DNA of 36,100 nucleotides from a bacterium (GTDB taxonomy: Bacteria > Patescibacteriota > Dojkabacteria > JAKAPS01 > JAJZLI01), in contig JAJYWX010000025.1 in NCBI GenBank assembly GCA_021791275.1, positions 1 to 36,100 of the forward strand. The letters are read 5' to 3'. Of the stretch, positions 1-17,259 are shown one piece after another. The notes under the pieces were generated by a model, which did no database searches, was not told the DNA's origin, and saw nothing but the letters and a program-made list of their open reading frames with translations. Every line of letters starts with the position of its first letter. Within the stretch, counting starts at the first letter, position 1. The translations under genes were made by a program, and so were the position numbers.

Positions 1-2034
1 TATCACAAGAAAAATAGGAAGACCTGTAGCTAAGAAGAATCCGACACCGATACCTAATGAAGGAATACCTAGTCCTGTTAAATATTCTGATTTAAAAATT
101 CCTAATCTAAGCTCACTAACATCCAGAGAAGATAAATCTGCATATGTGCTGAAATTTCTCCCGATAAGGACATTGCTGATAATCCTTGTTACAAAACTTC
201 CCGCAAAGACTCCCCCAACTCCCAGTACAAGAGGAAGTCCTCCAACTCCTAAAAATGATAGAGCTACCAAGGTTACAAATGCTGGACCAAAACTAAACGT
301 TGCAGAATTAAAAAGTAACTCTGGAGTACTCAAAGTTGTGTCTAAAAATGAACTTCCAACCCTTTGTACTATATTTACAACCAAAGGATTTTGAACAGAA
401 AAATAACTTGTAAAATCAAGGGCAAATTTAGATGTAAAAAAAAGTCCACCAATTATTCCCCCAAATAAAGGAGAAGATGTCATTGCACCAATAAGTATAG
501 CCGGTATTGCAGCTTCTATTGAATCTTTTGCTACAATTTTTAAAACCCCAACACCAAACCTAAAACTATCAAGAGATGTCATTAGTTTTCCCGCCAATCC
601 TTCTCCAGATGTATCTCTCATCAGAGAAAATATAGCCCTATCCCGGCCTACAATTTGAACTGCTTCTACAGCGATCCTATCAAGTATATATTTACCTAAA
701 TACACAACTAAAGCTGGTATGAGGGTAATAAAATCAAGTACTTTAAGTGGTCTTCTCTTTTTTCTCCTTGGATGATACTTTGTACTTAATATAGATAAAT
801 TTCCTCTATAGTTTTTTCTCCTTCTTGCCTCGTCTCCCCAGATATTGCTAAATGCAAATCTCACCCTTCTTGTATAATTTCTTAAAAATCCTTCCCCGTT
901 TATATTATTAAATGAAGGTGGCTTATATAACCTGGGATTTCGCAATCTCTCTCCAATAATATTTTGGGCTGATTCGGAAAATTTTTCACCGACATTAAAA
1001 ACATCCCTTATTCTCCTAAAGGAATAATTTTTTGTATCGATGAGTTTTCTATTAACACGAGCTCCACCAAAAAGCCCGGGGCCCAACCTTCCGTCAAAAC
1101 TTCTAGAAATATCTTTTTGATTAGCAAGCTTTGAAATTGTACCAAAAATACTAACACTGTTCTCTTCCACTAGCTTTCTTACAAGAGGGTTCGAATATTG
1201 AGCATTTTGAGCACTCCATCTTGCTCTATTAGACATTCCATCTCTTTGATGAGATGTTGCTAAATATCTCTCCCAATCACCTATTACCTTCCAGGATGAA
1301 GGAAGGGAGAAAAGTTTAGATTTTCTACCCTTCCTTCTAAGACGCTTATTATCCATAATAAGCTGGTACATATCATAAAATTTAAAAGTCCTATCATCAA
1401 GATATGATGTCCTTACATCCCTCGCCTCATGATCATGCAATATTTCTATACGTCCAGCATGAAAAATAGGATCAAGGTTTTCATCTAATGCAGGGACATA
1501 CCCTTTGGTATATAAAGATTCTAAAGATCGTTTTATAGAATTTAATACTTTAGGATTCCTAAGTGCTCTCTGTAATCCTTCATTCCCCTGTATATATTGC
1601 CTTCCTCTTTGGTTTTTAGCCGTAAAAGGAAGTGTTTGAGGATAAAAGTTTTTTGCAATATATGGAGCTAGTGCCTGAGAAAGAAGAGACGCCTCCCTTT
1701 CTTTAAATTTCCTCCTATAGCTAGGGGAAGATGTTTTTACAAACTCTTTCATTAAGTTTTGTGAGACGACAAGCTCTACAAATTTTTGAGCCTTGGTTCC
1801 ACTAAACCTTTGGAAGAGTCTAGAATTTCTACCTGTTAAAGAGTCTGGAAGTACAGGACTACTCTTTCCTGCACTTTGCTCTCTATACTCATCAATATAA
1901 TTCTCCAAATTTATCCTTGAAAAAGTAAGATCCCTGTCTAGATCTAAGTCTGTATAAAATTCATCCGTATAAACTAGGCGTAAATGTTCTCTTAAACGTT
2001 CAACTGTTAGACTAGAATTATTGTTGGTATCCAT
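1..2034 (-). CDS. Large basic protein with hydrophobic Gly-rich C-terminal part, partial at left edge
   Basis: An open reading frame of 678 codons starts with ATG at 2034 and runs off the window without a stop. I do not recognise the family. The first ~480 residues are soluble and rich in Arg, Lys, Asn and Ser. The rest holds several hydrophobic, glycine-rich segments that look like membrane helices, for example around GPAFVTLVALSFLGVGG and GIPSLGIGVGFFLATGLPIF. It starts 2 nt after the stop of the 226-residue gene and so sits in one transcription unit with that gene and the VirB6-like gene upstream. That context suggests an envelope or secretion-related membrane protein, but this is inference. 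The coding call rests on the long open frame and a plausible protein; the C-terminus lies outside the window. Confidence 0.85.
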   Translation of the reverse strand, partial: MDTNNNSSLTVERLREHLRLVYTDEFYTDLDLDRDLTFSRINLENYIDEYREQSAGKSSPVLPDSLTGRNSRLFQRFSGTKAQKFVELVVSQNLMKEFVKTSSPSYRRKFKEREASLLSQALAPYIAKNFYPQTLPFTAKNQRGRQYIQGNEGLQRALRNPKVLNSIKRSLESLYTKGYVPALDENLDPIFHAGRIEILHDHEARDVRTSYLDDRTFKFYDMYQLIMDNKRLRRKGRKSKLFSLPSSWKVIGDWERYLATSHQRDGMSNRARWSAQNAQYSNPLVRKLVEENSVSIFGTISKLANQKDISRSFDGRLGPGLFGGARVNRKLIDTKNYSFRRIRDVFNVGEKFSESAQNIIGERLRNPRLYKPPSFNNINGEGFLRNYTRRVRFAFSNIWGDEARRRKNYRGNLSILSTKYHPRRKKRRPLKVLDFITLIPALVVYLGKYILDRIAVEAVQIVGRDRAIFSLMRDTSGEGLAGKLMTSLDSFRFGVGVLKIVAKDSIEAAIPAILIGAMTSSPLFGGIIGGLFFTSKFALDFTSYFSVQNPLVVNIVQRVGSSFLDTTLSTPELLFNSATFSFGPAFVTLVALSFLGVGGLPLVLGVGGVFAGSFVTRIISNVLIGRNFSTYADLSSLDVSELRLGIFKSEYLTGLGIPSLGIGVGFFLATGLPIFLVI

Positions 2035-2036
2035 TT

Positions 2037-2717
2037 CTATACATTCCAATCATAATCATAATAAAATATGTTTTCATAGTATCTGCTATTTGCAAAAAAA
2101 TTGTTTCTATCATCAGGATTAAATACACCCCTGGTATACATACTAAAAATATCTTCCAAATAGCTTCCATTTTTACAATCATAAAAAGCAGCTCCATTTC
2201 CATCTAAAGATATGAACTTTCTTATCTTGGAAAGTGATATTTCTCTTTTTATATACTCCCCACCTTTCAAATCTAAATATTTGTCTAGATATTTAAAATT
2301 ATCATCATTTGTTATATTTAGATGGAAATTTAAATCATCATAATTCTCCTCTGATAGTGCCACTTCGTTATATATATCAATAGCCACCCCATCAGGAGTA
2401 TATATATTATCATCAAAAAAAAGTTCCTCTCCTTCTTTTCTTAAAAAAAGGTTTAAAAAATCTCTTCCAAAAAAATCATACAAAAAAGAAAAGTTATATT
2501 TAACATCCTCTCCTTTCTGAGAAAAATTCATTAAAGAGTAAAGTAGGTAATCATATAATAAACTGTCCGGATCCTTATAATAGTCAGATTCATATTCCTC
2601 TTTTTTCACAGATATGATCTCTGTTAAAAGATCATATTGCCCAAATGATTTAACAAAATCATAAAAAAGGTAAAAATCTTTGCCAAATTTATTGTTATAA
2701 TAATCTCTTAAAGTCAT
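2037..2717 (-). CDS. Hypothetical acidic Tyr/Asp/Phe-rich protein (226 aa)
   Basis: Unrecognised soluble protein with no evident signal peptide or transmembrane segment. It is strikingly rich in Tyr, Asp, Phe and Asn (for example DFYLFYDFVKSFGQYD near the N-terminus and ENIFYYDYDWNV at the end). Its ATG overlaps the TAA of the VirB6-like gene by one base (TAATG), and the next gene begins 2 nt after its stop. Translational coupling to both neighbours is therefore likely. The acidic, aromatic composition contrasts with the basic N-terminal part of the downstream protein and would fit a partner or chaperone role, but that is only a guess. Confidence 0.8.
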   Translation of the reverse strand: MTLRDYYNNKFGKDFYLFYDFVKSFGQYDLLTEIISVKKEEYESDYYKDPDSLLYDYLLYSLMNFSQKGEDVKYNFSFLYDFFGRDFLNLFLRKEGEELFFDDNIYTPDGVAIDIYNEVALSEENYDDLNFHLNITNDDNFKYLDKYLDLKGGEYIKREISLSKIRKFISLDGNGAAFYDCKNGSYLEDIFSMYTRGVFNPDDRNNFFANSRYYENIFYYDYDWNV

Positions 2718-4321
2718 TACTGACCACCAACTCCGAAAGTTTTCTTTGCACTACCATACCAACCTCTAAGGCTATTTGTAGGTTGCAAGAATCCTCTCTT
2801 TAACTCAGAAACATAAGAAGAAAAGTCATATCCTAATGCTTTTGTAACATCATCAACGAGCTTAGGAATAAGAACAAAAAGAGAGATTGCAATAATAGCT
2901 GCAATTGCAGATGATCCTTTACTGTTTATTGAGCCAACTAATGGTGCCAATCCCAATAAGGGAAGGGAATTTCCATTATAAAACGATTGAGTTGTATTTA
3001 GAAGATAATATATAAGGTTAAAAATTGTATATGTTGTTACAAATATAGCAACAGCTTTTAACATTCCTTTAAAAAATGTGCCTATGTATTTAGACTGTCC
3101 AGGAATAGCACCGATTAAAAAAAGAAAGGGGGATACAACAGGCAGGAAAAGAAATATTATATACCCCTTAAGAAGTTTTATAATTATTTTAAATAAGGTA
3201 AATAAAAGTATAACAGAAACTATAAATACTATTATATCTTGAGATGCACTATTTCCTGTTATAAATTTACCTATGGCAGCAAATATGGTTGCCAGAATAT
3301 GCCCGTTTTGATTTTGTATTTGTGTCAATACCCCGCTTGTACCTTTAAGTGTATCTACGGTTCCTGTGGATGATACATTTCCAAAAACAGAGTATACATA
3401 AGATCTTGAGCTAAAGGCACTAGGAAAGGAGTTAGCCTGGCCATTGCTCAGTGGAGAAAGTTGACCATTTAGAGTTGAGAATGCTGCAAATATAAATCCT
3501 AATATTATATTCATAAGATCTATCATAAAACCTCCAATCGCGTAACTAAAGGTTATCAAGAATATAGCTGCTATAATATTTGGAAGGGCACTCATAAAAG
3601 TAATTGGAACTTGTCCTCCAACTTTTCCTCCTATTATTATAAGAATTCCTGTTACTACTATGATAAGAAGAAGGAATATGTATGCCAAATTCCTCGCAAC
3701 CGCCCAAATTGGATATATTGGAGACAAGAATGAAAATCCATATACAGGACCGGAGTACTGAGGGTTATTTGTTGCTGCATATGTCTTTCCAGCTAGACCT
3801 GATTTGTTATAAAGATATGCAAAATATCCAACACCACTTGCAGTGGGATTTGCATACAAGTCTCCCATAAGAGAAGCTCCAACTCCCATTGCTCCATATC
3901 CACCAGTGTAGTGGAACCCTGTTGTTCCTGCATTTTGGTATTGAGTATAGTTTCCTAAAATTGCAATTGCAGTTGACTGAAAGAGTGCAGGAGTTGATCC
4001 ACAAGATTCCCAAACAGAAATTCCAGAACCATTTTGAGGAGCACACTGATTAAGTGTAGTCTGTGCCCCAGTAGCACTTTGAGCAAACACGGCACCAGTA
4101 AAAAATAACGCAGAAAGAACAACAAAAATACCTAAATATTTAATATTTATTCTACTCCCCCTTCTTAAATCAGACCCTGTTGCGTTTTCAACAAAATCTA
4201 AAGAATTTTCTTTGGAAATTTTTAATCTTTTGGAAACTAATCTCGTTCTTAAAAGAAATATCTTGTATTTAAGTTTTTTTTCTGTATATTTACTATTTAA
4301 GATCTCTAATATTTTTTTCAT
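2717..4321 (-). CDS. VirB6/TrbL-like polytopic membrane protein
   Basis: A 534-residue protein. A basic cytoplasmic stretch (1-60) precedes a hydrophobic segment (62-80) ending in a signal-peptidase-like GAVFAQ site. An extracytoplasmic Gly/Tyr/Asn-rich region (~81-200) with two cysteines (93, 107) follows. The rest is strongly hydrophobic, with helices near 211-232, 244-282, 362-382, 386-407, 419-441 and 471-487. The arrangement resembles VirB6/TrbL-type inner-membrane channel components of type IV secretion systems, which are frequent in CPR genomes. No VirB4 or VirD4 ATPase lies in the window, so secretion function is inferred. A promoter-like pair (TTGTAA, 17 nt, TAGAAT) lies 10 nt upstream of the ATG. 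An alternative is a generic polytopic surface-assembly protein. Confidence 0.65.
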   Translation of the reverse strand: MKKILEILNSKYTEKKLKYKIFLLRTRLVSKRLKISKENSLDFVENATGSDLRRGSRINIKYLGIFVVLSALFFTGAVFAQSATGAQTTLNQCAPQNGSGISVWESCGSTPALFQSTAIAILGNYTQYQNAGTTGFHYTGGYGAMGVGASLMGDLYANPTASGVGYFAYLYNKSGLAGKTYAATNNPQYSGPVYGFSFLSPIYPIWAVARNLAYIFLLLIIVVTGILIIIGGKVGGQVPITFMSALPNIIAAIFLITFSYAIGGFMIDLMNIILGFIFAAFSTLNGQLSPLSNGQANSFPSAFSSRSYVYSVFGNVSSTGTVDTLKGTSGVLTQIQNQNGHILATIFAAIGKFITGNSASQDIIVFIVSVILLFTLFKIIIKLLKGYIIFLFLPVVSPFLFLIGAIPGQSKYIGTFFKGMLKAVAIFVTTYTIFNLIYYLLNTTQSFYNGNSLPLLGLAPLVGSINSKGSSAIAAIIAISLFVLIPKLVDDVTKALGYDFSSYVSELKRGFLQPTNSLRGWYGSAKKTFGVGGQ

Positions 4322-4331
4322 AAAACAGATA

Positions 4332-4360
4332 ATTCTATAAGAATTTATATATTATTACAA
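4332..4360 (-). promoter_or_regulatory. Promoter of the VirB6-like operon
   Basis: On the minus strand TTGTAA (4360-4355) and TAGAAT (4337-4332) are separated by 17 nt. The -10 ends 10 nt before the ATG at 4321, so a transcript would have almost no leader. The -35 overlaps the trmD stop codon. No Shine-Dalgarno motif is present. Sequence match only. Confidence 0.5.
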
Positions 4361-5017
4361 TAGCAAATCCTTTCTATTTTTTCTAGTTTTTTTTAGAGCG
4401 ATTTCATCTCTATATTCTTTTATCTTTTCATGGTTTCCGGATATTAATATTTCAGGAACACTTTTATCTAAAAACTCTAAAGGTTTTGTGTATTGAGGAT
4501 ACTCCAAAATATTACTATTAAAAGACTCTTCTTTAAGAGAATCTTTATTTTGTAAAACTCCATCTATCTGTCTTGCTAGTGAATCAATAATAACTAATGC
4601 CGGGATATCTCCCGATGAAAGTATATAGTCCCCAATTGAAATTTCTTCATCCACAAAATCAACAATCCTCTCATCAAAACCTTCATACTTGGGACATATT
4701 ATTGTTATATTATCTTTTGAAGATAGCTCTTTAGCTTTTTCCTGGTTATATTTTTTCCCAGAAGCAGACATTATAAGAGAGTGTGTCTCTTCTTTTACTG
4801 ACTTTAGAGCATTATATAGAACATCCACCCTAATAATCATTCCTGCTCCACCTCCATAAGGAGTATCATCCACTCTCCCCTTTCCATCAAAGGAAAAATC
4901 TCTTAAATCTATAATATTTATATATAATTTATTTAAGCTTATCGCCTTTTTTATTATACCTAACGAGAAGAAATTTTCATAAAAAGAAGGGAATAGGGTT
5001 ATCAAATTTATTTTCAT
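4355..5017 (-). CDS. trmD: tRNA (guanine-37-N1)-methyltransferase TrmD
   Basis: TrmD uses S-adenosylmethionine to methylate G37 next to the anticodon of tRNAs and so prevents +1 frameshifting. Family motifs are clear: DDTPYGGGAGM (50-60), CPKYEGFDERI (108-118), the knot region EISIGDYILSSGDIPA (125-140), PQYTKP (174-179) and SGNHEKIKEYR (193-203). At 220 residues it is slightly shorter than the usual 240-250, mostly at the C-terminus. It starts 15 nt after the trxA stop, probably in the same unit. The usual rimM, rpsP and rplS neighbours are absent. Confidence 0.95.
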   Translation of the reverse strand: MKINLITLFPSFYENFFSLGIIKKAISLNKLYINIIDLRDFSFDGKGRVDDTPYGGGAGMIIRVDVLYNALKSVKEETHSLIMSASGKKYNQEKAKELSSKDNITIICPKYEGFDERIVDFVDEEISIGDYILSSGDIPALVIIDSLARQIDGVLQNKDSLKEESFNSNILEYPQYTKPLEFLDKSVPEILISGNHEKIKEYRDEIALKKTRKNRKDLLL

Positions 5018-5032
5018 AATATATATAATATA

Positions 5033-5356
5033 TTACGATAAGTTTTCAATTTCTTTTTCAAAATCAGATTTTGGTCTAACACCTATAAGCCTAGAGACTT
5101 CTTTTCCATTCTTAAAAAATACGACATTTGGTATGCTCATAATCTCATATTTTGATGCTATATCTGAATTATTATCTACATCTAATTTACAAACCTTTAC
5201 CTTATCTTTAAATTCTTCAGATATCTCTTCTATCACTGGTGATAACATGTGGCATGGCATACACCAATCTGCCCAAAAATCAACAATTATGATTTTACCA
5301 TCTTCTTCCAAGACTTCTTTTTGAAATGTTTCTGATGTTAAATCTAGATGAGACAT
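5033..5356 (-). CDS. trxA: Thioredoxin with WCMPCH active site
   Basis: A 107-residue single-domain thioredoxin, a cytoplasmic thiol-disulfide reductant. The fold core FWADWCMPC (27-35) and the cis-proline loop SIPNVVFFKNG (74-84, Pro76) are intact. The redox motif is Cys32-Met-Pro-Cys35-His rather than the canonical CGPCK, which may shift the redox potential. The ATG is preceded by a TGT-TATAAT extended -10 (5395-5387) 30 nt upstream, at the edge of the terminator T-run of the pilin gene. trmD follows 15 nt downstream. No Shine-Dalgarno motif is seen. Confidence 0.93.
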   Translation of the reverse strand: MSHLDLTSETFQKEVLEEDGKIIIVDFWADWCMPCHMLSPVIEEISEEFKDKVKVCKLDVDNNSDIASKYEIMSIPNVVFFKNGKEVSRLIGVRPKSDFEKEIENLS

Positions 5357-5446: not shown

Positions 5447-6028
5447 TTAGCTTCCATACTCATATGCAAGTGGGTATCCTGCAGTATCTGTAGTTGCCCC
5501 TTGTTGCATTCCTGTAGCAAAAACTAAAATTTTATTTCCAGAAGTGTTTTCTCCTACATAATATGTACCTGCTGGTACAGATGTAAGATATGTACTTATT
5601 TCTGAATACAGTGAAGATGATGATGTTAATTGAACACAATCACCTGCGGCAGTTCCTGCTGTAACAGTTACTGTTGCACTAGGTATCGTTCCAGTTCCAG
5701 TAACACAATATGGAGTTCCAACTGTTGCTCCTGTTGCTCCTGTTGCAGAACCAGTTATATTATAACCATAAGCTGATGTTGTTAAAATAACAGAACCTGA
5801 AGATGGAGCAGGAATATTTGCTGGGTAATTACCACCGTGATCTACTGTATATGTTTGAATTGCTTTAAATATTTGTTGAATATTGCTTACTCTAGATGTA
5901 TTATTAGAGTCTGCTATTCTTCCTACTGGATTTAAAGCTATAAAAACAACCAAGGCGAGAATAGCTATAATTACTATAACTATCAAAATTTCGATAAGGG
6001 TAAAACCTTTATTTGCTATTTTTTTCAT
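5447..6028 (-). CDS. Type IV pilin-like protein, candidate major pilin
   Basis: A 193-residue protein with a class III signal: a short basic leader, then KG^FTLIE (cut expected after Gly8, Glu at +5) and a long hydrophobic helix, as in type IV pilins and pseudopilins assembled from the inner membrane. The globular part has a Gly/Ala/Thr-rich segment encoded by three direct copies of a 9-base unit (around 5725-5745), and two cysteines (YCVTG and DCVQL) that could form the pilin disulfide. Expression signals are exceptional: a TTGACA promoter, an 11-base Shine-Dalgarno match and a tandem terminator. One sampled 60-base line (5641-5700) is 52% G+C, far above neighbours. All this suggests an abundant structural subunit. 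The rest of the pilus machinery lies at 28.9-36.1 kb. Confidence 0.9.
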   Translation of the reverse strand: MKKIANKGFTLIEILIVIVIIAILALVVFIALNPVGRIADSNNTSRVSNIQQIFKAIQTYTVDHGGNYPANIPAPSSGSVILTTSAYGYNITGSATGATGATVGTPYCVTGTGTIPSATVTVTAGTAAGDCVQLTSSSSLYSEISTYLTSVPAGTYYVGENTSGNKILVFATGMQQGATTDTAGYPLAYEYGS

Positions 6029-6036
6029 TTTTTATC

Positions 6037-6047
6037 TCACCTCCTTT
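6037..6047 (-). promoter_or_regulatory. Near-perfect Shine-Dalgarno of the pilin gene
   Basis: The minus strand reads AAAGGAGGTGA, of which ten bases (AAGGAGGTGA) pair without interruption with the canonical 16S rRNA 3' end. It ends 8 nt before the ATG at 6028. Other starts inspected (dnaA, dnaN, grpE, dnaK, rnpA, tal, the VirB6-like gene) have nothing comparable, so this site sets the pilin gene apart. Confidence 0.9.
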
Positions 6048-6064
6048 GTTTGTATACATAATAA

Positions 6065-6091
6065 TTTATATTAGTGGTATTTTTTTGTCAA
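6065..6091 (-). promoter_or_regulatory. Promoter of the pilin gene
   Basis: The minus strand carries a consensus -35 TTGACA (6091-6086) and TATAAA (6070-6065) 15 nt later; TAAATT two bases further gives 17-nt spacing. The -35 lies immediately after the TGA of the upstream pilin-like gene, so the pilin can be transcribed independently with a leader of roughly 30 nt that carries the strong ribosome binding site. Confidence 0.65.
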
Positions 6092-6093
6092 CA

Positions 6094-6642
6094 TCACTGT
6101 TTATAAGTAAGAAATGCTACTGCTAAACCTTTAGAATCAACACTTTTACCTGTCCCTAGATTATTAGCAAAAACAACAACTTCATTACCATAAACATTCT
6201 TTGCCACATAAAAACTCCCCTGAGGAAAATTTCCTTTTAAATATTCTTTTATTTGAGAATAAAATATTGACTGTTTTGATACAGATAAACATATATTACT
6301 TTTAGCTCCTGCCTGTATGCAATTTGGGATCCCTTCTTTTTTTGTATTAATATTGAACCCAGCCCCTATACCAGAAGAATTGACATTTCCTATTATAAAA
6401 TTACCAGGTATTGTAGGTATTGAAGGAGGAAACATTCCATGATTATTTATGGAATAAACCTCTATTGCTGATAAAATTTTATTCACCCCTATCTCTCTAT
6501 TAAGATTATATGTATCTGAAACTTGATTTCTGTTATTAAGGCTGAAAAAGATTATAAATGAAAAAAGAGCAATAGTTATCAAGATTAATAAAATCTCAGT
6601 TATACCAAAATTTTTATCTTTACTCTCTTGTGTATCGGACAT
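6094..6642 (-). CDS. Pilin-like protein with degenerate prepilin peptidase site
   Basis: A 182-residue paralogue of the adjacent pilin. Shared features are the helix-to-globule transition with an Asn/Arg-rich turn, AIEVYSINNHGMFPPSIP, two cysteines (NCIQ, NICL), and a matching C-terminal block (FYSQIKEYL then FYVAKN, GNEVVVFA). The signal differs: where the pilin has KGFTLIE this protein has KNFGITE, so the essential Gly before the cleavage site is Asn, although Glu+5 is kept. It may stay uncleaved as a membrane-anchored pilin-like protein. It lies upstream of the pilin and divergent from dnaA. A TATATT hexamer (6655-6650) ends 7 nt before the ATG, consistent with a leaderless mRNA. Confidence 0.8.
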   Translation of the reverse strand: MSDTQESKDKNFGITEILLILITIALFSFIIFFSLNNRNQVSDTYNLNREIGVNKILSAIEVYSINNHGMFPPSIPTIPGNFIIGNVNSSGIGAGFNINTKKEGIPNCIQAGAKSNICLSVSKQSIFYSQIKEYLKGNFPQGSFYVAKNVYGNEVVVFANNLGTGKSVDSKGLAVAFLTYKQ

Positions 6643-6761: not shown

Positions 6762-8099
6762 ATGAAAGATAACAGTGAAACTATCTGGAAGTTAGCTTCT
6801 TCTCAAATAAAAATAAAAATTACAGAGAAAAATTTTAAAATTTGGTTCTCTAAGGTACAACTGGACTCTATTAAAAATAATGTTGCCACTTTATCTGTAC
6901 AAAATTCATTTACATCAGATTATTTACAAAAAAACTATTTTAATATTACAAAAAATGCACTATCAGAAGTTTATGGAGAAAATCTAGATTTAGTTTTCAA
7001 AATAAGGCAGGAAGATTTAGAAATAGAAGATACCCCTATATTCAATTATACAAAAAATGAGACTACAGAGACTCAAAATTATACTCTTAATCCAAAGTAT
7101 CAGATATCAAATTTTATAGTAGGATCATCTAATAGACTTGCTCATGCTGCAGCAATGGCGATAATATCATCTCCTGGGACAATATATAATCCACTGTTTA
7201 TTTACGGGGGAGTAGGGTTAGGAAAAACTCACCTTATGCAGGCAGTTGGAAATGAACTTTTGAAAAAGAATGACAAACTAAAAATAACTTATATGAGTAG
7301 TGAAACTCTTTTAAATGATTTTATAAACTCAATAGTAAAGGGGAAGAATGAAAATTTTAGAAAAAAATATAGAGAAAATGATGTATTGATAATAGATGAT
7401 ATACAGTTCATATCCGGGAAAAAAGCAATACAGGAAGAATTTTTTCATACTTTTAATACATTGCAACAATCAAATAAACAAATAATATTAGCATCAGATA
7501 GACACCCTAAAGAGATTGAAAATTTAGAAGAAAGGTTAGTATCTAGATTTGAAGGAGGGATGGTTGCAGATATAACAAATCCTGACGAAGAGATGAGGAT
7601 TGCTATACTTAGAAAAAAATGTGAAGAAAAAAATTTAGACATAGACGATGATATCATTTCCCTTATATCAGAGAACATTAAATCAAATATACGAGAATTA
7701 GAGGGAGTTTTAACTAAAATAGATGCAACCGAAAAGATTATGGGGAAAAAGATGTCTAAACAGGAAGTTTCAGATTTAATAGGAATTAATATTAGGAAAA
7801 GGAATAGAATATTAAAACCTAAGGATATAATAATAAATATATGTGATAAATTTGGTGTTTCTCAAAGAGAGATTATTGGAGAGAAAAGAACAAATAGAAT
7901 TGCACTTCCAAGACAGATAGCAATGTATATGTTAAGGAAAGATTTAAATTTACCATTAACAGAAGTTGCAAATATACTAAAGCGTAAAGACCATACTACA
8001 GTTTTGTATGCTGTGGATAAGATAGAAAAATTAATGGATTCAGATGTATATATAAAAGATCAAATTAGCGATATTAGAAGTAATTTGGAAAGATTTTAA
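6762..8099 (+). CDS. dnaA: Chromosomal replication initiator DnaA
   Basis: DnaA binds DnaA boxes, oligomerises with ATP, melts the origin and loads the helicase. The protein has 445 residues. Domain I lies at ~1-80 and a short variable domain II at ~85-110. The AAA+ domain has Walker A GGVGLGKT (149-156) and Walker B LIIDDIQF (209-216), and ERLVSRFEGG near 258-266 precedes the sensor regions. The C-terminal helix-turn-helix keeps the signature KDHTTVLYAV. The start is supported by the promoter 8 nt upstream; no Shine-Dalgarno motif is visible. It is followed by the ~300-nt origin region and dnaN, the classic order. Confidence 0.97.
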   Translation: MKDNSETIWKLASSQIKIKITEKNFKIWFSKVQLDSIKNNVATLSVQNSFTSDYLQKNYFNITKNALSEVYGENLDLVFKIRQEDLEIEDTPIFNYTKNETTETQNYTLNPKYQISNFIVGSSNRLAHAAAMAIISSPGTIYNPLFIYGGVGLGKTHLMQAVGNELLKKNDKLKITYMSSETLLNDFINSIVKGKNENFRKKYRENDVLIIDDIQFISGKKAIQEEFFHTFNTLQQSNKQIILASDRHPKEIENLEERLVSRFEGGMVADITNPDEEMRIAILRKKCEEKNLDIDDDIISLISENIKSNIRELEGVLTKIDATEKIMGKKMSKQEVSDLIGINIRKRNRILKPKDIIINICDKFGVSQREIIGEKRTNRIALPRQIAMYMLRKDLNLPLTEVANILKRKDHTTVLYAVDKIEKLMDSDVYIKDQISDIRSNLERF

Positions 8100-14744: not shown

Positions 14745-15308
14745 ATGAAAAATATGGAAGATAAAAAGAAAAAAATAAACAAGAAAGACAAAAAATTAAA
14801 AGATACTTCTAAAGATATCGAAAAAGAGGTATTTGCAGAACTTGATAAAAAAGATGCTCAAATAGAGGATTTGAAAGCTCAGGTTCTAGATTTAGAGGGA
14901 AAACTTAAGTCTGCACTCAGCGATTATCAAAATTTTAAAAGAAGAATAGAGAATGACAAAGAAAATGCTAGTAATTTATTAGAAAATTTTCTTTTGAGAG
15001 AAATTATAAATATATCAGATAACATTTATTTGTATATAAAACATTTAGAAAAAGATAAGAAAGATGAGAGTATTTTAACAGGGATAAGGATGATTTATTC
15101 AGATTGTGAGAATGTCATCAAATCTCAAGGAGTAGTTTTAGAAGAGGTAAATGTCGGAGATACATTCTCCCCTATTTTACACGAAGTTGTAGGTACTGTT
15201 GTTGGAGAAGATGAAAACAAGATAGTGGAAGTAGTTAGAGTTGGATATAAAAAGGGAGATCAGGTTATAAGGCCTGCTAGGGTGATTGTACAGAAAAAAG
15301 AGATTTAA
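14745..15308 (+). CDS. grpE: DnaK nucleotide exchange factor GrpE
   Basis: GrpE releases ADP from DnaK to restart its chaperone cycle. The 187-residue protein has a very Lys-rich N-terminus, a long coiled-coil helix (~35-75: KKDAQIEDLKAQVLDLEGKL then DYQNFKRRIENDKE), and the beta domain with GDTFSPILHEVVGTV and the ending GYKKGDQVIRPARVIVQK typical of the family. An alternative start lies three codons in. It lies 10 nt after hrcA and 22 nt before dnaK. No Shine-Dalgarno motif is seen. Confidence 0.94.
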   Translation: MKNMEDKKKKINKKDKKLKDTSKDIEKEVFAELDKKDAQIEDLKAQVLDLEGKLKSALSDYQNFKRRIENDKENASNLLENFLLREIINISDNIYLYIKHLEKDKKDESILTGIRMIYSDCENVIKSQGVVLEEVNVGDTFSPILHEVVGTVVGEDENKIVEVVRVGYKKGDQVIRPARVIVQKKEI

Positions 15309-15330
15309 TTTATTTTAGTTTATTATTATT

Positions 15331-17259
15331 ATGTCAAAAATATTAGGTATAGATTTAGGAACAACTAATTCTGCAATGGCTTTCATGGAAGGAGGGGAGC
15401 CTACCGTAATAACAAATTCGGAAGGTGCAAGAACAACCCCATCAGTGGTTGCTATATTGCAGGATAAGTCTAGAGCAGTTGGGGTTTCTGCTAAAAACCA
15501 AATGGTTTTAAACCCAAAACAGACGTTTTATTCTATCAAAAGGTTAATTGGTAGATCTTGGGAAGATGAGGAAGTCCAAAGAGATATAAAAGTTTTCCCT
15601 TTTGAGCTAAGGAAATCATCTTCTGGAGGTGTTGAGATTAAGGTTGGTGATGAGTGGTTAGCACCAGAAGCTATATCAGCTATGGTACTTTCAAAGCTTA
15701 AAGCTGATGCTGAAAGTTTTCTAGGAGAAAAGATAAAAGAGGCAGTAATTACTGTGCCTGCTTATTTCGATGACTCTCAAAGGCAAGCAACCAAGAATGC
15801 AGGGAAGATTGCAGGTTTAGATGTAAAACGAATTATAAATGAACCTACTGCAGCTGCACTTGCATATGGTTTTGATAAAAAAGGAGATAAGACTATTGTG
15901 GTATATGATCTTGGGGGTGGAACATTTGATGTTTCAGTCCTTGAGCTTGGAGATGGAATATTCGAAGTAATTTCAACTAATGGGGATACTCATTTAGGTG
16001 GAGATGACTTTGATAGAAGGTTAATAGATTATATAGCAGATGATTTTAAAAAGAGTAATGGAATAGATTTAAGGGATGATACTGCAGCACTTCAAAGATT
16101 AAAAGAAGCTGCAGAGAAAGCAAAGATAGAACTTTCATCTACAAATCAGACACAGATAAATATCCCATTCATAACTGCAGACTCTTCTGGCCCAAAGCAT
16201 TTGAATATGACTATAACAAGATCTCAATTAGAAAATCTTGTTAAAGATTTAGTTGAAAAGACTATGGAGCCAGTTAAGAAAGCATTGGATGATGCTAAAA
16301 AGAAGGTTTCAGATATAGATGAAGTGATATTAGTTGGTGGTATGACTAGGATGCCTGCTATTACTGATGCAGTTAAAGATTTCTTTGGAAAAGATCCAAA
16401 TAAGAGTGTTAATCCAGATGAAGTTGTAGCTATAGGAGCTGCAGTTCAAGGGGGAGTTTTAGCTGGAGATGTAAGAGATGTAACACTTTTAGATGTTACT
16501 CCTCTGTCTTTAGGGTTAGAGACGTTAGGTGGAGTATCTACCAGAATTATAGATAGAAATTCAACTATCCCTATTCAAAAGAAACAGGTATTTACAACCG
16601 CTGCAGATAATCAAACTTCTGTAGAAATACACATATTACAAGGAGAAAGAGAGTTCGCAAAAGATAACAAGACTCTAGGTAGGTTTATCTTAGATGGAAT
16701 TGCTCCTGCAAAAAGAGGTATTCCTCAGATAGAAGTGACATTTGATATTGATGCAAATGGTATTTTGAAGGTATCTGCAAAGGATAATGCTACTGGAAAG
16801 GAACAACATATAACAATTACTGCCAATACATCTTTATCAGATAGTGAAGTAGAAAAGCTCATAAAAGATGCTGAAGAACATCAAGCTGAAGATAAAGAAA
16901 GAAAAGAATTAGTAGAGTTAAAAAATTCTGCAGAGACAGTAGCATTTAGTGCTGAAACTTTCTTAACAGAAAATAAAGATAAAATACCAGAAGATAAAAA
17001 GACTCAATTAGAGGATAAAATAAAAGACTTGAAAGACATTGTTGCAAAAGATGATGTAACTAAAGATCAAATTCAAACATCCTTAAATGAGCTTGAATCT
17101 TTGATGCAAGATATAGGTACTACAATGAATGCATCTGCATCTTCGTCTGAACCTGAAAGTAACCCTTCAGACTCAAGCGAATCAGGGGATTCTGACTCAG
17201 ATAAAGGTAAAGATGAGACAGATGAATCTGAGGTTAAAGAAGGTGAAGTTGTAAACTAA
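15331..17259 (+). CDS. dnaK: Hsp70 chaperone DnaK
   Basis: The ATP-driven Hsp70 chaperone, 642 residues. The nucleotide-binding domain shows [13 protein letters not shown] (6-18), [19 protein letters not shown] and [15 protein letters not shown]. The interdomain linker [13 protein letters not shown] precedes the substrate-binding domain ([17 protein letters not shown]) and the helical lid. The tail is Ser/Asp/Glu-rich with a run of Ser-Asp repeats and ends EVKEGEVVN, close to the usual acidic ending. It is the last gene of hrcA-grpE-dnaK; dnaJ is not next to it. A hairpin follows at 17268-17305. Confidence 0.98.

What the first reader, a model, noticed from the sequence alone, without database searches (positions are those of the whole stretch)
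1..4321. VirB6/TrbL-like gene coupled to two unrecognised proteins
Three genes are coupled by a 1-nt overlap and a 2-nt gap: a seven-helix VirB6/TrbL-like protein with a Gly/Asn-rich outer domain, an acidic Tyr/Asp/Phe-rich soluble protein, and a protein of more than 678 residues with a very basic N-terminal part and Gly-rich membrane segments. No ATPase is in view. The acidic and basic pairing suggests a complex. This is the best candidate in the window for an undescribed secretion or envelope system, possibly for DNA uptake or host contact in an episymbiotic cell.
Basis: partly seen in the sequence, partly recalled or inferred. Interest (0 to 1): 0.55.

Follow-up and report, generated by a model that had tools for sequence, protein, structure and literature searches.

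The report
Split-off VirB6 operon of Patescibacteria T4SS
Three coupled genes in a tiny, probably host-dependent bacterium look like one piece of a known type of cell-envelope transfer machine whose parts are scattered over the chromosome; two of the three proteins resemble nothing characterised and may be parts special to this bacterial family.

Summary
A VirB6-like, an acidic and a large basic/Gly-rich membrane protein are encoded by coupled genes, in this order in 8 of 8 genomes of the family. The window starts at a contig end. Contig C5 overlaps it by 532 bases at 96.6% and carries the rest of the large gene (about 1,570 residues in all), then five genes for exported or membrane-anchored proteins, one ending in a degenerate M23 domain (NlpC/P60 in four relatives), one lysozyme-like. 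No sequence profile finds VirB6, but its low-confidence model matches DotA and R388 VirB6 best, and in other classes its relative lies near VirB4 on the same strand in 25 of 29 same-contig cases. VirB4 and a PrgI-like protein are on contig C20, T4SS pilins on C25. So this is a dispersed form of the published Patescibacteria type IV secretion system. New here: VirB6 and VirB4 at least 16 kb apart in all 21 class genomes with both on one contig, and two proteins found only in this family (8 of 85 class genomes). Their role is inferred.

The parts
2717..4321 (-). VirB6-like polytopic membrane protein, 534 aa
   Evidence: ORF; model matches DotA and R388 VirB6 entries best; relatives near VirB4 in other classes
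2037..2717 (-). Acidic soluble all-helical protein, 226 aa, no known family
   Evidence: ORF; 8 of 8 family genomes, 0 of 77 others of the class; model pLDDT 90.5; no PDB or viral fold match
1..2034 (-). N-terminal part of the large basic/Gly-rich membrane protein; continues on contig C5 (L034:6762-9977, minus strand), about 1,572 aa in all by arithmetic
   Evidence: ORF, overlap with C5, relatives of 1,458-1,647 aa in 5 loci with an unbroken gene
4355..5017 (-). trmD, conserved upstream neighbour (landmark)
   Evidence: Pfam tRNA_m1G_MT E 3.8e-56; syntenic in family loci
5033..5356 (-). thioredoxin, conserved upstream neighbour (landmark)
   Evidence: Pfam Thioredoxin E 7.9e-31; syntenic
5447..6642 (-). 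Two type IV prepilin-like genes (5447-6028 and 6094-6642), conserved upstream neighbours; membership of the same transcript not shown
   Evidence: N_methyl E 1e-7 for the first, no Pfam match for the second; related to each other and syntenic
6762..8099 (+). dnaA, divergent (landmark near the replication origin)
   Evidence: Bac_DnaA E 1.2e-67

Best explanation
The three genes head a 'VirB6 operon' of the Patescibacteria type IV secretion system (T4SS) that is separated from the VirB4 locus. Shown by sequence: gene order VirB6-like, acidic protein, about 1,570-aa membrane protein, then (on C5) proteins of 284, 761 (wall-hydrolase-like C-terminal domain), 133, 259 (lysozyme-like) and 131 residues, each with one N-terminal hydrophobic segment; PrgI-like protein and VirB4 on another contig; T4SS pilins on a third. 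Inferred: VirB6 is the central stalk or protochannel; the giant Gly-rich protein is a membrane ring or sheath around or below it, with a cytoplasmic basic N-terminal domain; the acidic protein binds that basic domain as cytosolic adaptor, assembly chaperone or gate; the hydrolase-like proteins open or sense the wall, as VirB1/PrgK do; VirB4 supplies energy. Direction and cargo remain open.
For: VirB6: Foldseek rows 1-8 are all chains of R388 T4SS stalk entries (VirB5/VirB6), E 4.9e-3 to 0.57; re-alignment ranks the DotA-IcmX entry first (Z 10.3, rmsd 5.2, 226 aligned) and three R388 stalk entries next (Z 8.0, 8.0, 7.1; rmsd 6.0-6.3; 221-235 aligned), next row Z 6.0. Linkage: 40 of 40 chosen genomes of other classes with a VirB6-like match have VirB4; of 29 with both on one contig, 25 have them within 25 kb on the same strand. 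Own genome: VirB4 (92.8 bits), PrgI domain (24.7 bits, cut-off 27), T4SS pilins. Hydrolase-like genes follow in the operon. Family-wide gene order 8 of 8.
Against: No curated sequence profile recognises the VirB6-like protein and a profile search of PDB sequences finds nothing. The VirB6 model is weak (mean pLDDT 56.7, pTM 0.47), no Foldseek match reaches E 0.001, and the tool warns that Z below about 13 can be a common arrangement for helical proteins. VirB6 is 45-58 kb from VirB4 on the opposite strand in the 6 family genomes where this can be seen, so joint action is not shown. pI 4.3 is not rare: 4 of 36 window ORFs of 100 aa or more have pI 4.5 or less. The acidic and large families are absent from the other 77 class genomes, so they are not core T4SS parts.
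Confidence: 0.65

Rival explanations
1. The acidic and large proteins are cargo and partner, not machine parts: the giant Gly-rich protein is a T4SS-delivered effector or pore for the host cell, and the acidic protein is its secretion chaperone or protector.
For: Both are restricted to one family (8 of 85 class genomes); 10-15 weakly hydrophobic, Gly-rich segments in the 5 unbroken relatives; adjacency of a small acidic and a large protein.
Against: Present in 8 of 8 family genomes in a fixed place between VirB6 and the hydrolase-like genes, more like a structural part; basic residues ahead of the first segment suggest a membrane-inserted protein with cytoplasmic N-terminus; no known effector or toxin match.
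Confidence: 0.15
2. The operon belongs to a second, lineage-specific T4SS driven by the second VirB4-like ATPase on C20 (537 aa, with a TcpE-like neighbour), not by the standard VirB4.
For: A second VirB4-like match is in 8 of 8 family genomes and, as partial matches, 2 of 2 of the sister family; a weak TcpE (VirB3-type) match lies two genes from it (E 0.005, below cut-off).
Against: Only one VirB6-like gene per family genome was found, and relatives of the same VirB6 group are linked to the standard PrgI-228aa-VirB4 set in other classes. In 3 of the 8 family genomes the second ATPase frame shows a stop inside.
Confidence: 0.12
3. An envelope or wall-remodelling operon unrelated to secretion that happens to contain a VirB6-like membrane protein.
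For: Wall-hydrolase-like domains, no ATPase in the locus, housekeeping neighbours trmD and thioredoxin, no sequence-profile match to VirB6.
Against: Structural matches to VirB6/DotA and linkage to VirB4 in other classes.
Confidence: 0.08

Closest known systems
Patescibacteria T4SS of MPF_FATA descent (PMC12102498; Southlakia epibionticum SEML1_0006-0019, PMC10633639)
   Same: VirB4, PrgI/VirB3-like, VirB6-like, VirB2-type pilin array, peptidase and lysozyme-like genes; near dnaA
   Different: Here in at least three places (C13/C5, C20, C25); VirB6 operon carries two family-restricted proteins. Note that PMC12102498 already reports VirB6 homologues not near virB4 (304 of 480 were near).
R388 TrwI/VirB6 and Legionella DotA
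   Same: Best structural matches of the VirB6 model; both are VirB6 proteins in the review PMC12857230 (passages)
   Different: 11-16% identity in the alignments; an N-terminal extension and a Gly/Ala/Thr-rich domain of about 110 residues before the core; no VirB5 recognised
PrgK/VirB1 of pCF10 (PMC12857230, section 10)
   Same: Membrane-anchored extracellular wall enzymes, including a LytM-type domain with a regulatory rather than catalytic role
   Different: Separate proteins here; the C-terminal domain is degenerate M23 in 3 loci and NlpC/P60 in 4, on one conserved scaffold of about 600 residues

Membership tests
VirB6 | Polytopic inner-membrane protein with a sizeable extracytoplasmic part | tested here: met
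   6 hydrophobic segments and about 110 residues between the first two; predicted only
VirB6 | VirB6 fold of the core (TrwI/DotA) | tested here: met
   Top rows are R388 stalk entries and DotA-IcmX; model weak, E not below 0.001, so met with caution
VirB6 | Recognised by curated sequence profiles (supporting, not defining) | tested here: inconclusive
   0 of 17 members in Pfam, 0 in NCBIfam for the window protein; CONJScan profiles not on hand; PMC12102498 reports strong VirB6 divergence
VirB6 | Genetic link to VirB3/VirB4 | tested here: met
   Relatives in other classes: 25 of 29 same-contig cases within 25 kb, same strand. Not so in the window's own class (21 of 21 at 16 kb or more)
VirB6 | Pentameric channel/stalk | not testable with these tools
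   no complex modelling left
Patescibacteria T4SS | VirB4 ATPase | tested here: met
   C20, 805 aa, P-loop_TraG E 5.9e-26 and CagE_TrbE_VirB over its cut-off; 55 of 57 near genomes
Patescibacteria T4SS | PrgI/VirB3 homologue beside VirB4 | tested here: met
   PrgI domain E 3.4e-5, 24.7 bits, just below the cut-off of 27, in a 578-aa protein two genes from VirB4
Patescibacteria T4SS | TrsD homologue | tested here: inconclusive
   228-aa protein between PrgI-like and VirB4; only TraC_F_IV E 0.09; conserved in all 14 fetched loci of other classes
Patescibacteria T4SS | VirB2-like pilin array | tested here: met
   8 T4SS_pilin matches in the own genome, at least 6 in one run on C25
Patescibacteria T4SS | VirB8, coupling protein, relaxase | not tested
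Active M23 peptidase (761-aa protein on C5) | His ligand ahead of the conserved Asp and a C-terminal HxH (motif recalled) | tested here: not met
   No His there and no HxH in the 3 M23-type family members; five comparison domains, chosen because they show HLH/HVH, align to the same region. Not filed as an active peptidase

The most novel reading that the evidence does not exclude
The acidic protein and the about 1,570-aa Gly-rich membrane protein form a new kind of T4SS membrane subcomplex, special to one Patescibacteria family: a soluble acidic clamp that holds or gates the basic cytoplasmic domain of a giant ring or sheath around VirB6, doing work that VirB8/VirB10-type or other lineage-specific giant proteins do elsewhere.
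Probability: 0.3. Interest if true: 0.65.

Novelty: new variant of a known kind. Interest (0 to 1): 0.45.

Why it matters
The Patescibacteria T4SS is essential for epibiotic growth in the one species tested (PMC10633639, PMC12102498), and its cargo is unknown (PMC11665869). The published survey focused mainly on genes within 20 positions of virB4; here, in 21 of 21 class genomes with both genes on one contig, VirB6 lies 16 kb or more away (median 45 kb), and no curated profile recognises it. If right, part of the machine in this class has been out of sight. The operon names candidate subunits, one with a confident model and no PDB match, that can be tested directly.

Tried and rejected
Curated families: no Pfam or NCBIfam match up to E 1 for the three target proteins; no PHROGs match at E 0.01 for these and three C5 proteins. 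PDB sequences: VirB6 profile 0 hits up to E 1; acidic profile 5 weak unrelated rows, best E 0.081; large profile 3, best E 0.039; the 761-aa profile matched only gp41 constructs over 55 positions (E 0.0013), taken as spurious.

Fold of the acidic protein: Foldseek PDB best E 2.4; second look best Z 3.0; viral library best E 0.85. This shows no known relative, not that the fold is new; residues 1-101 were barely tested by the aligner.

Are long proteins beside VirB6 in other families the same as the large protein? Seven family profiles against 13 groups of neighbours: best match 33 columns, probability 83.5, E 8.3e-6, to a 2,414-aa protein of the sister family; Gly-rich composition can explain it, so left open. 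Five profiles against 13 groups, mostly from other classes: best probability 26.7. Of 10 such long proteins in the class only the 2,414-aa one has 8 or more hydrophobic segments.

Acidity: 4 of 36 window ORFs of 100 aa or more have pI 4.5 or less and 10 of 36 pI 5 or less, so it is weak evidence for a complex.

Class identity: ribosomal L9 matched in 8 of 57 near genomes; I hoped to name the class from this and a paper search and could not. The phylum rests on a record title ('Patescibacteria group bacterium', L030) of a contig whose length equals that of family genome G003:C30.

Literature searches. PMC12102498: parts 1-4 of 7 of the text. PMC10633639, PMC11665869, PMC10849945: passages. PMC12857230: passages and section 10. 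Other listed papers: listing only. I saw no text on the acidic or giant protein in what I read; supplements were not open to me. PMC10849945 shows, in a figure legend that I saw, unnamed novel membrane families near virB6 in Patescibacteria, which could include such genes.
Full report
Observation. Three minus-strand genes end at the left edge of the window: 2717-4321, 2037-2717 and 1-2034. The window is contig C13 from base 1 of a draft genome of 887,797 bases in 37 contigs, so the third gene is cut by the assembly.

What lies to the left. In relatives the large gene has 1,458 to 1,647 residues (5 loci with an unbroken gene: L025-L028, L035; L029 ends inside it and L030 has it as two ORFs) and is followed by more genes on the same strand. 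Searching the own genome with the large protein of L026 found the missing part on contig C5, and with the 759-aa protein of L026 the continuation of the operon. C5 is 9,978 bases long; its last 532 bases match window bases 1-532 at 96.6%. The 18 differences fall 2/2/14 on the three codon positions, change 5 of 177 residues and make no stop. I read this as strain variants at a contig break. The large protein is then about 1,572 residues. On C5 follow genes of 284, 761, 133, 259 and 131 residues on the same strand, after which two genes stand on the other strand. Each of the five has one N-terminal hydrophobic segment, so they are probably exported or membrane-anchored.

Conservation. Eight family genomes are held (G000-G007); loci L025-L030 are the same contigs as six or so of them (equal contig lengths or ranges), so the sample is eight genomes, not more. 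All 8 carry VirB6-like, acidic and large genes in this order, and 8 of 8 the 761-aa type. Across the class the acidic, large and 761-aa families are each found in 8 of 85 genomes, all of this family. The VirB6-like protein is much wider: 51 of 57 near genomes, the own one included, and, with an alignment of 17 relatives, 129 of 285 genomes drawn from the phylum. Upstream, trmD, thioredoxin, pilin-like genes and divergent dnaA/dnaN recur in family loci; L028 begins inside this stretch and L030 has two extra genes in it.

Is the first protein VirB6? No Pfam or NCBIfam model recognises it, nor any of 17 relatives in Pfam. Its AlphaFold2 model is weak (mean pLDDT 56.7, pTM 0.47; core helices mostly 70-85). 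Even so, the first 8 PDB rows are all chains of R388 T4SS stalk entries (E 4.9e-3 to 0.57; none below 0.001), and re-alignment puts the DotA-IcmX entry (Z 10.3) and three R388 stalk entries (Z 8.0, 8.0, 7.1) above the other rows (6.0 and less). That the chains are DotA and VirB6, rather than their partners, is my reading of chain length and entry title. The review PMC12857230 (passages) treats DotA as the VirB6 of Dot/Icm. The tool warns that such Z values can be a common arrangement in helical proteins; what persuades me is that T4SS proteins of one kind from two systems head the list.

Neighbourhood is the second line. From the 129 genomes I chose 40 by hand, all of other classes, the stronger matches and some weak ones. 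A VirB4 search found VirB4 in 40 of 40. In 25 the best VirB6-like match lies within 25 kb of VirB4 on the same strand (median 8.1 kb); in 10 the two are on different contigs; 4 are 68-105 kb apart, all of one family (f47); for 1 the coordinate was not printed. I then fetched 14 loci, 13 of the close kind and G110 whose order differs. Of these 14, 13 show a VirB6-like match (two in L062, none in L061), 13 a PrgI-like one (weak in L062), 14 the 228-aa type, 14 VirB4 and 10 dnaN and/or dnaA. An HLH motif like that of M23 peptidases is in 4 of 9 long proteins beside VirB4 there (pattern match only).

In the window's class the arrangement differs. In 21 genomes with both genes on one contig they are 16 to 304 kb apart, median 45 kb; the other class genomes with both have them on different contigs. 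In the six family genomes among the 21 the distance is 44.6 to 58.5 kb and the strands are opposite. In G000 VirB4 is on contig C20 beside a 228-aa protein and a 578-aa protein with a PrgI domain; further along lies a second VirB4-like ATPase with a weak TcpE-like neighbour. Seven pilin-sized ORFs, at least six of them T4SS_pilin matches, are on C25 next to groESL and a UvrD-type gene. The machine is thus spread over at least three places.

Hydrolase-like proteins. The 761-aa protein has a conserved scaffold of about 600 residues. Its C-terminal domain is M23-like in this genome, L026 and L030 (E 0.0006 to 0.005, below the Pfam cut-off) and NlpC/P60 in L025, L027, L028 and L035 (E 2e-8 to 3e-6, over the cut-off). 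The three M23-like domains have no His ahead of the conserved Asp and no HxH (ligand pattern recalled). The 259-aa family, as a mixed profile of seven, matches goose-type lysozyme at E 0.0054; SLT_2 matches are weak in two relatives (E 0.011 and 0.22) and absent in the window's own protein. PrgK of pCF10 also combines a LytM-type domain of regulatory role with a muramidase (PMC12857230 section 10).

The two unrecognised proteins. The acidic protein has pI 4.34-4.79 in 8 of 8, no hydrophobic segment in the four examined, and a confident all-helical model (mean pLDDT 90.5, pTM 0.88) with no significant PDB or viral match. The large protein has a basic N-terminal part of about 380-525 residues, a Gly-rich hydrophobic cluster, a soluble middle part (acidic in L026) and a second Gly-rich cluster, with a conserved C-terminal tail. 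Arg/Lys runs just ahead of the first segment suggest that the N-terminal domain is cytoplasmic (inference). A cytosolic acidic partner for that basic domain is the simplest reading and is untested.

Mechanism. I propose that VirB6 is the central stalk or protochannel, the giant protein a family-specific membrane scaffold around it, the acidic protein its cytosolic partner, and the hydrolase-like proteins wall openers or sensors; VirB4 powers the machine. The roles of VirB6, hydrolases and VirB4 follow from homology; those of the giant and acidic proteins are inference. Cargo and direction are open: the literature speaks of DNA or protein delivery and of nucleotide acquisition (PMC10633639, PMC11665869, passages).

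Novelty. The system is a variant of the described Patescibacteria T4SS. PMC12102498 had already found part of its VirB6 homologues away from virB4 (304 of 480 near it), so dispersal as such is not new. New here, as far as the searches named go, are the class-wide separation, the VirB6-headed operon with exchangeable wall-hydrolase-like domains, and the two family-restricted proteins.

Noticed in passing
L004:1515-3128 (-) and L004:3646-3933 (-), contig C20: A second VirB4-like ATPase (537 aa) and, two genes off, a 95-aa protein with a weak TcpE (VirB3-type) match, close to the standard VirB4; a second VirB4-like match is in 8 of 8 family genomes and 2 of 2 of the sister family.
   Followed up: partly
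L034:3667-5952 (-) versus L025, L027, L028, L035: The C-terminal domain of one wall protein is degenerate M23 in three loci and NlpC/P60 in four, on the same scaffold: a domain swap within one bacterial family.
   Followed up: partly
L056, L057, L058, L063, L064, between VirB6 and PrgI: A long ORF of 600-2,100 residues on the opposite strand sits inside the T4SS cluster of other classes.
   Followed up: no
L042:3270-10514 (-): In the sister family VirB6 is followed directly by a 2,414-aa protein with 8 hydrophobic segments in place of the acidic and large genes.
   Followed up: partly
L030:12174-14900 and 14931-16613: The large gene reads as two adjacent ORFs (908 and 560 aa) in one family genome: a real split or an assembly error.
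   Followed up: no
window 5447-6642: Two prepilin-like genes and a thioredoxin stand directly upstream of trmD and the VirB6 operon in the family; type IV pilin-like, not T4SS_pilin.
   Followed up: no
window 1-532 and L034:9447-9978: Contig break with 3.4% strain divergence, mostly at third codon positions, inside the large gene.
   Followed up: yes
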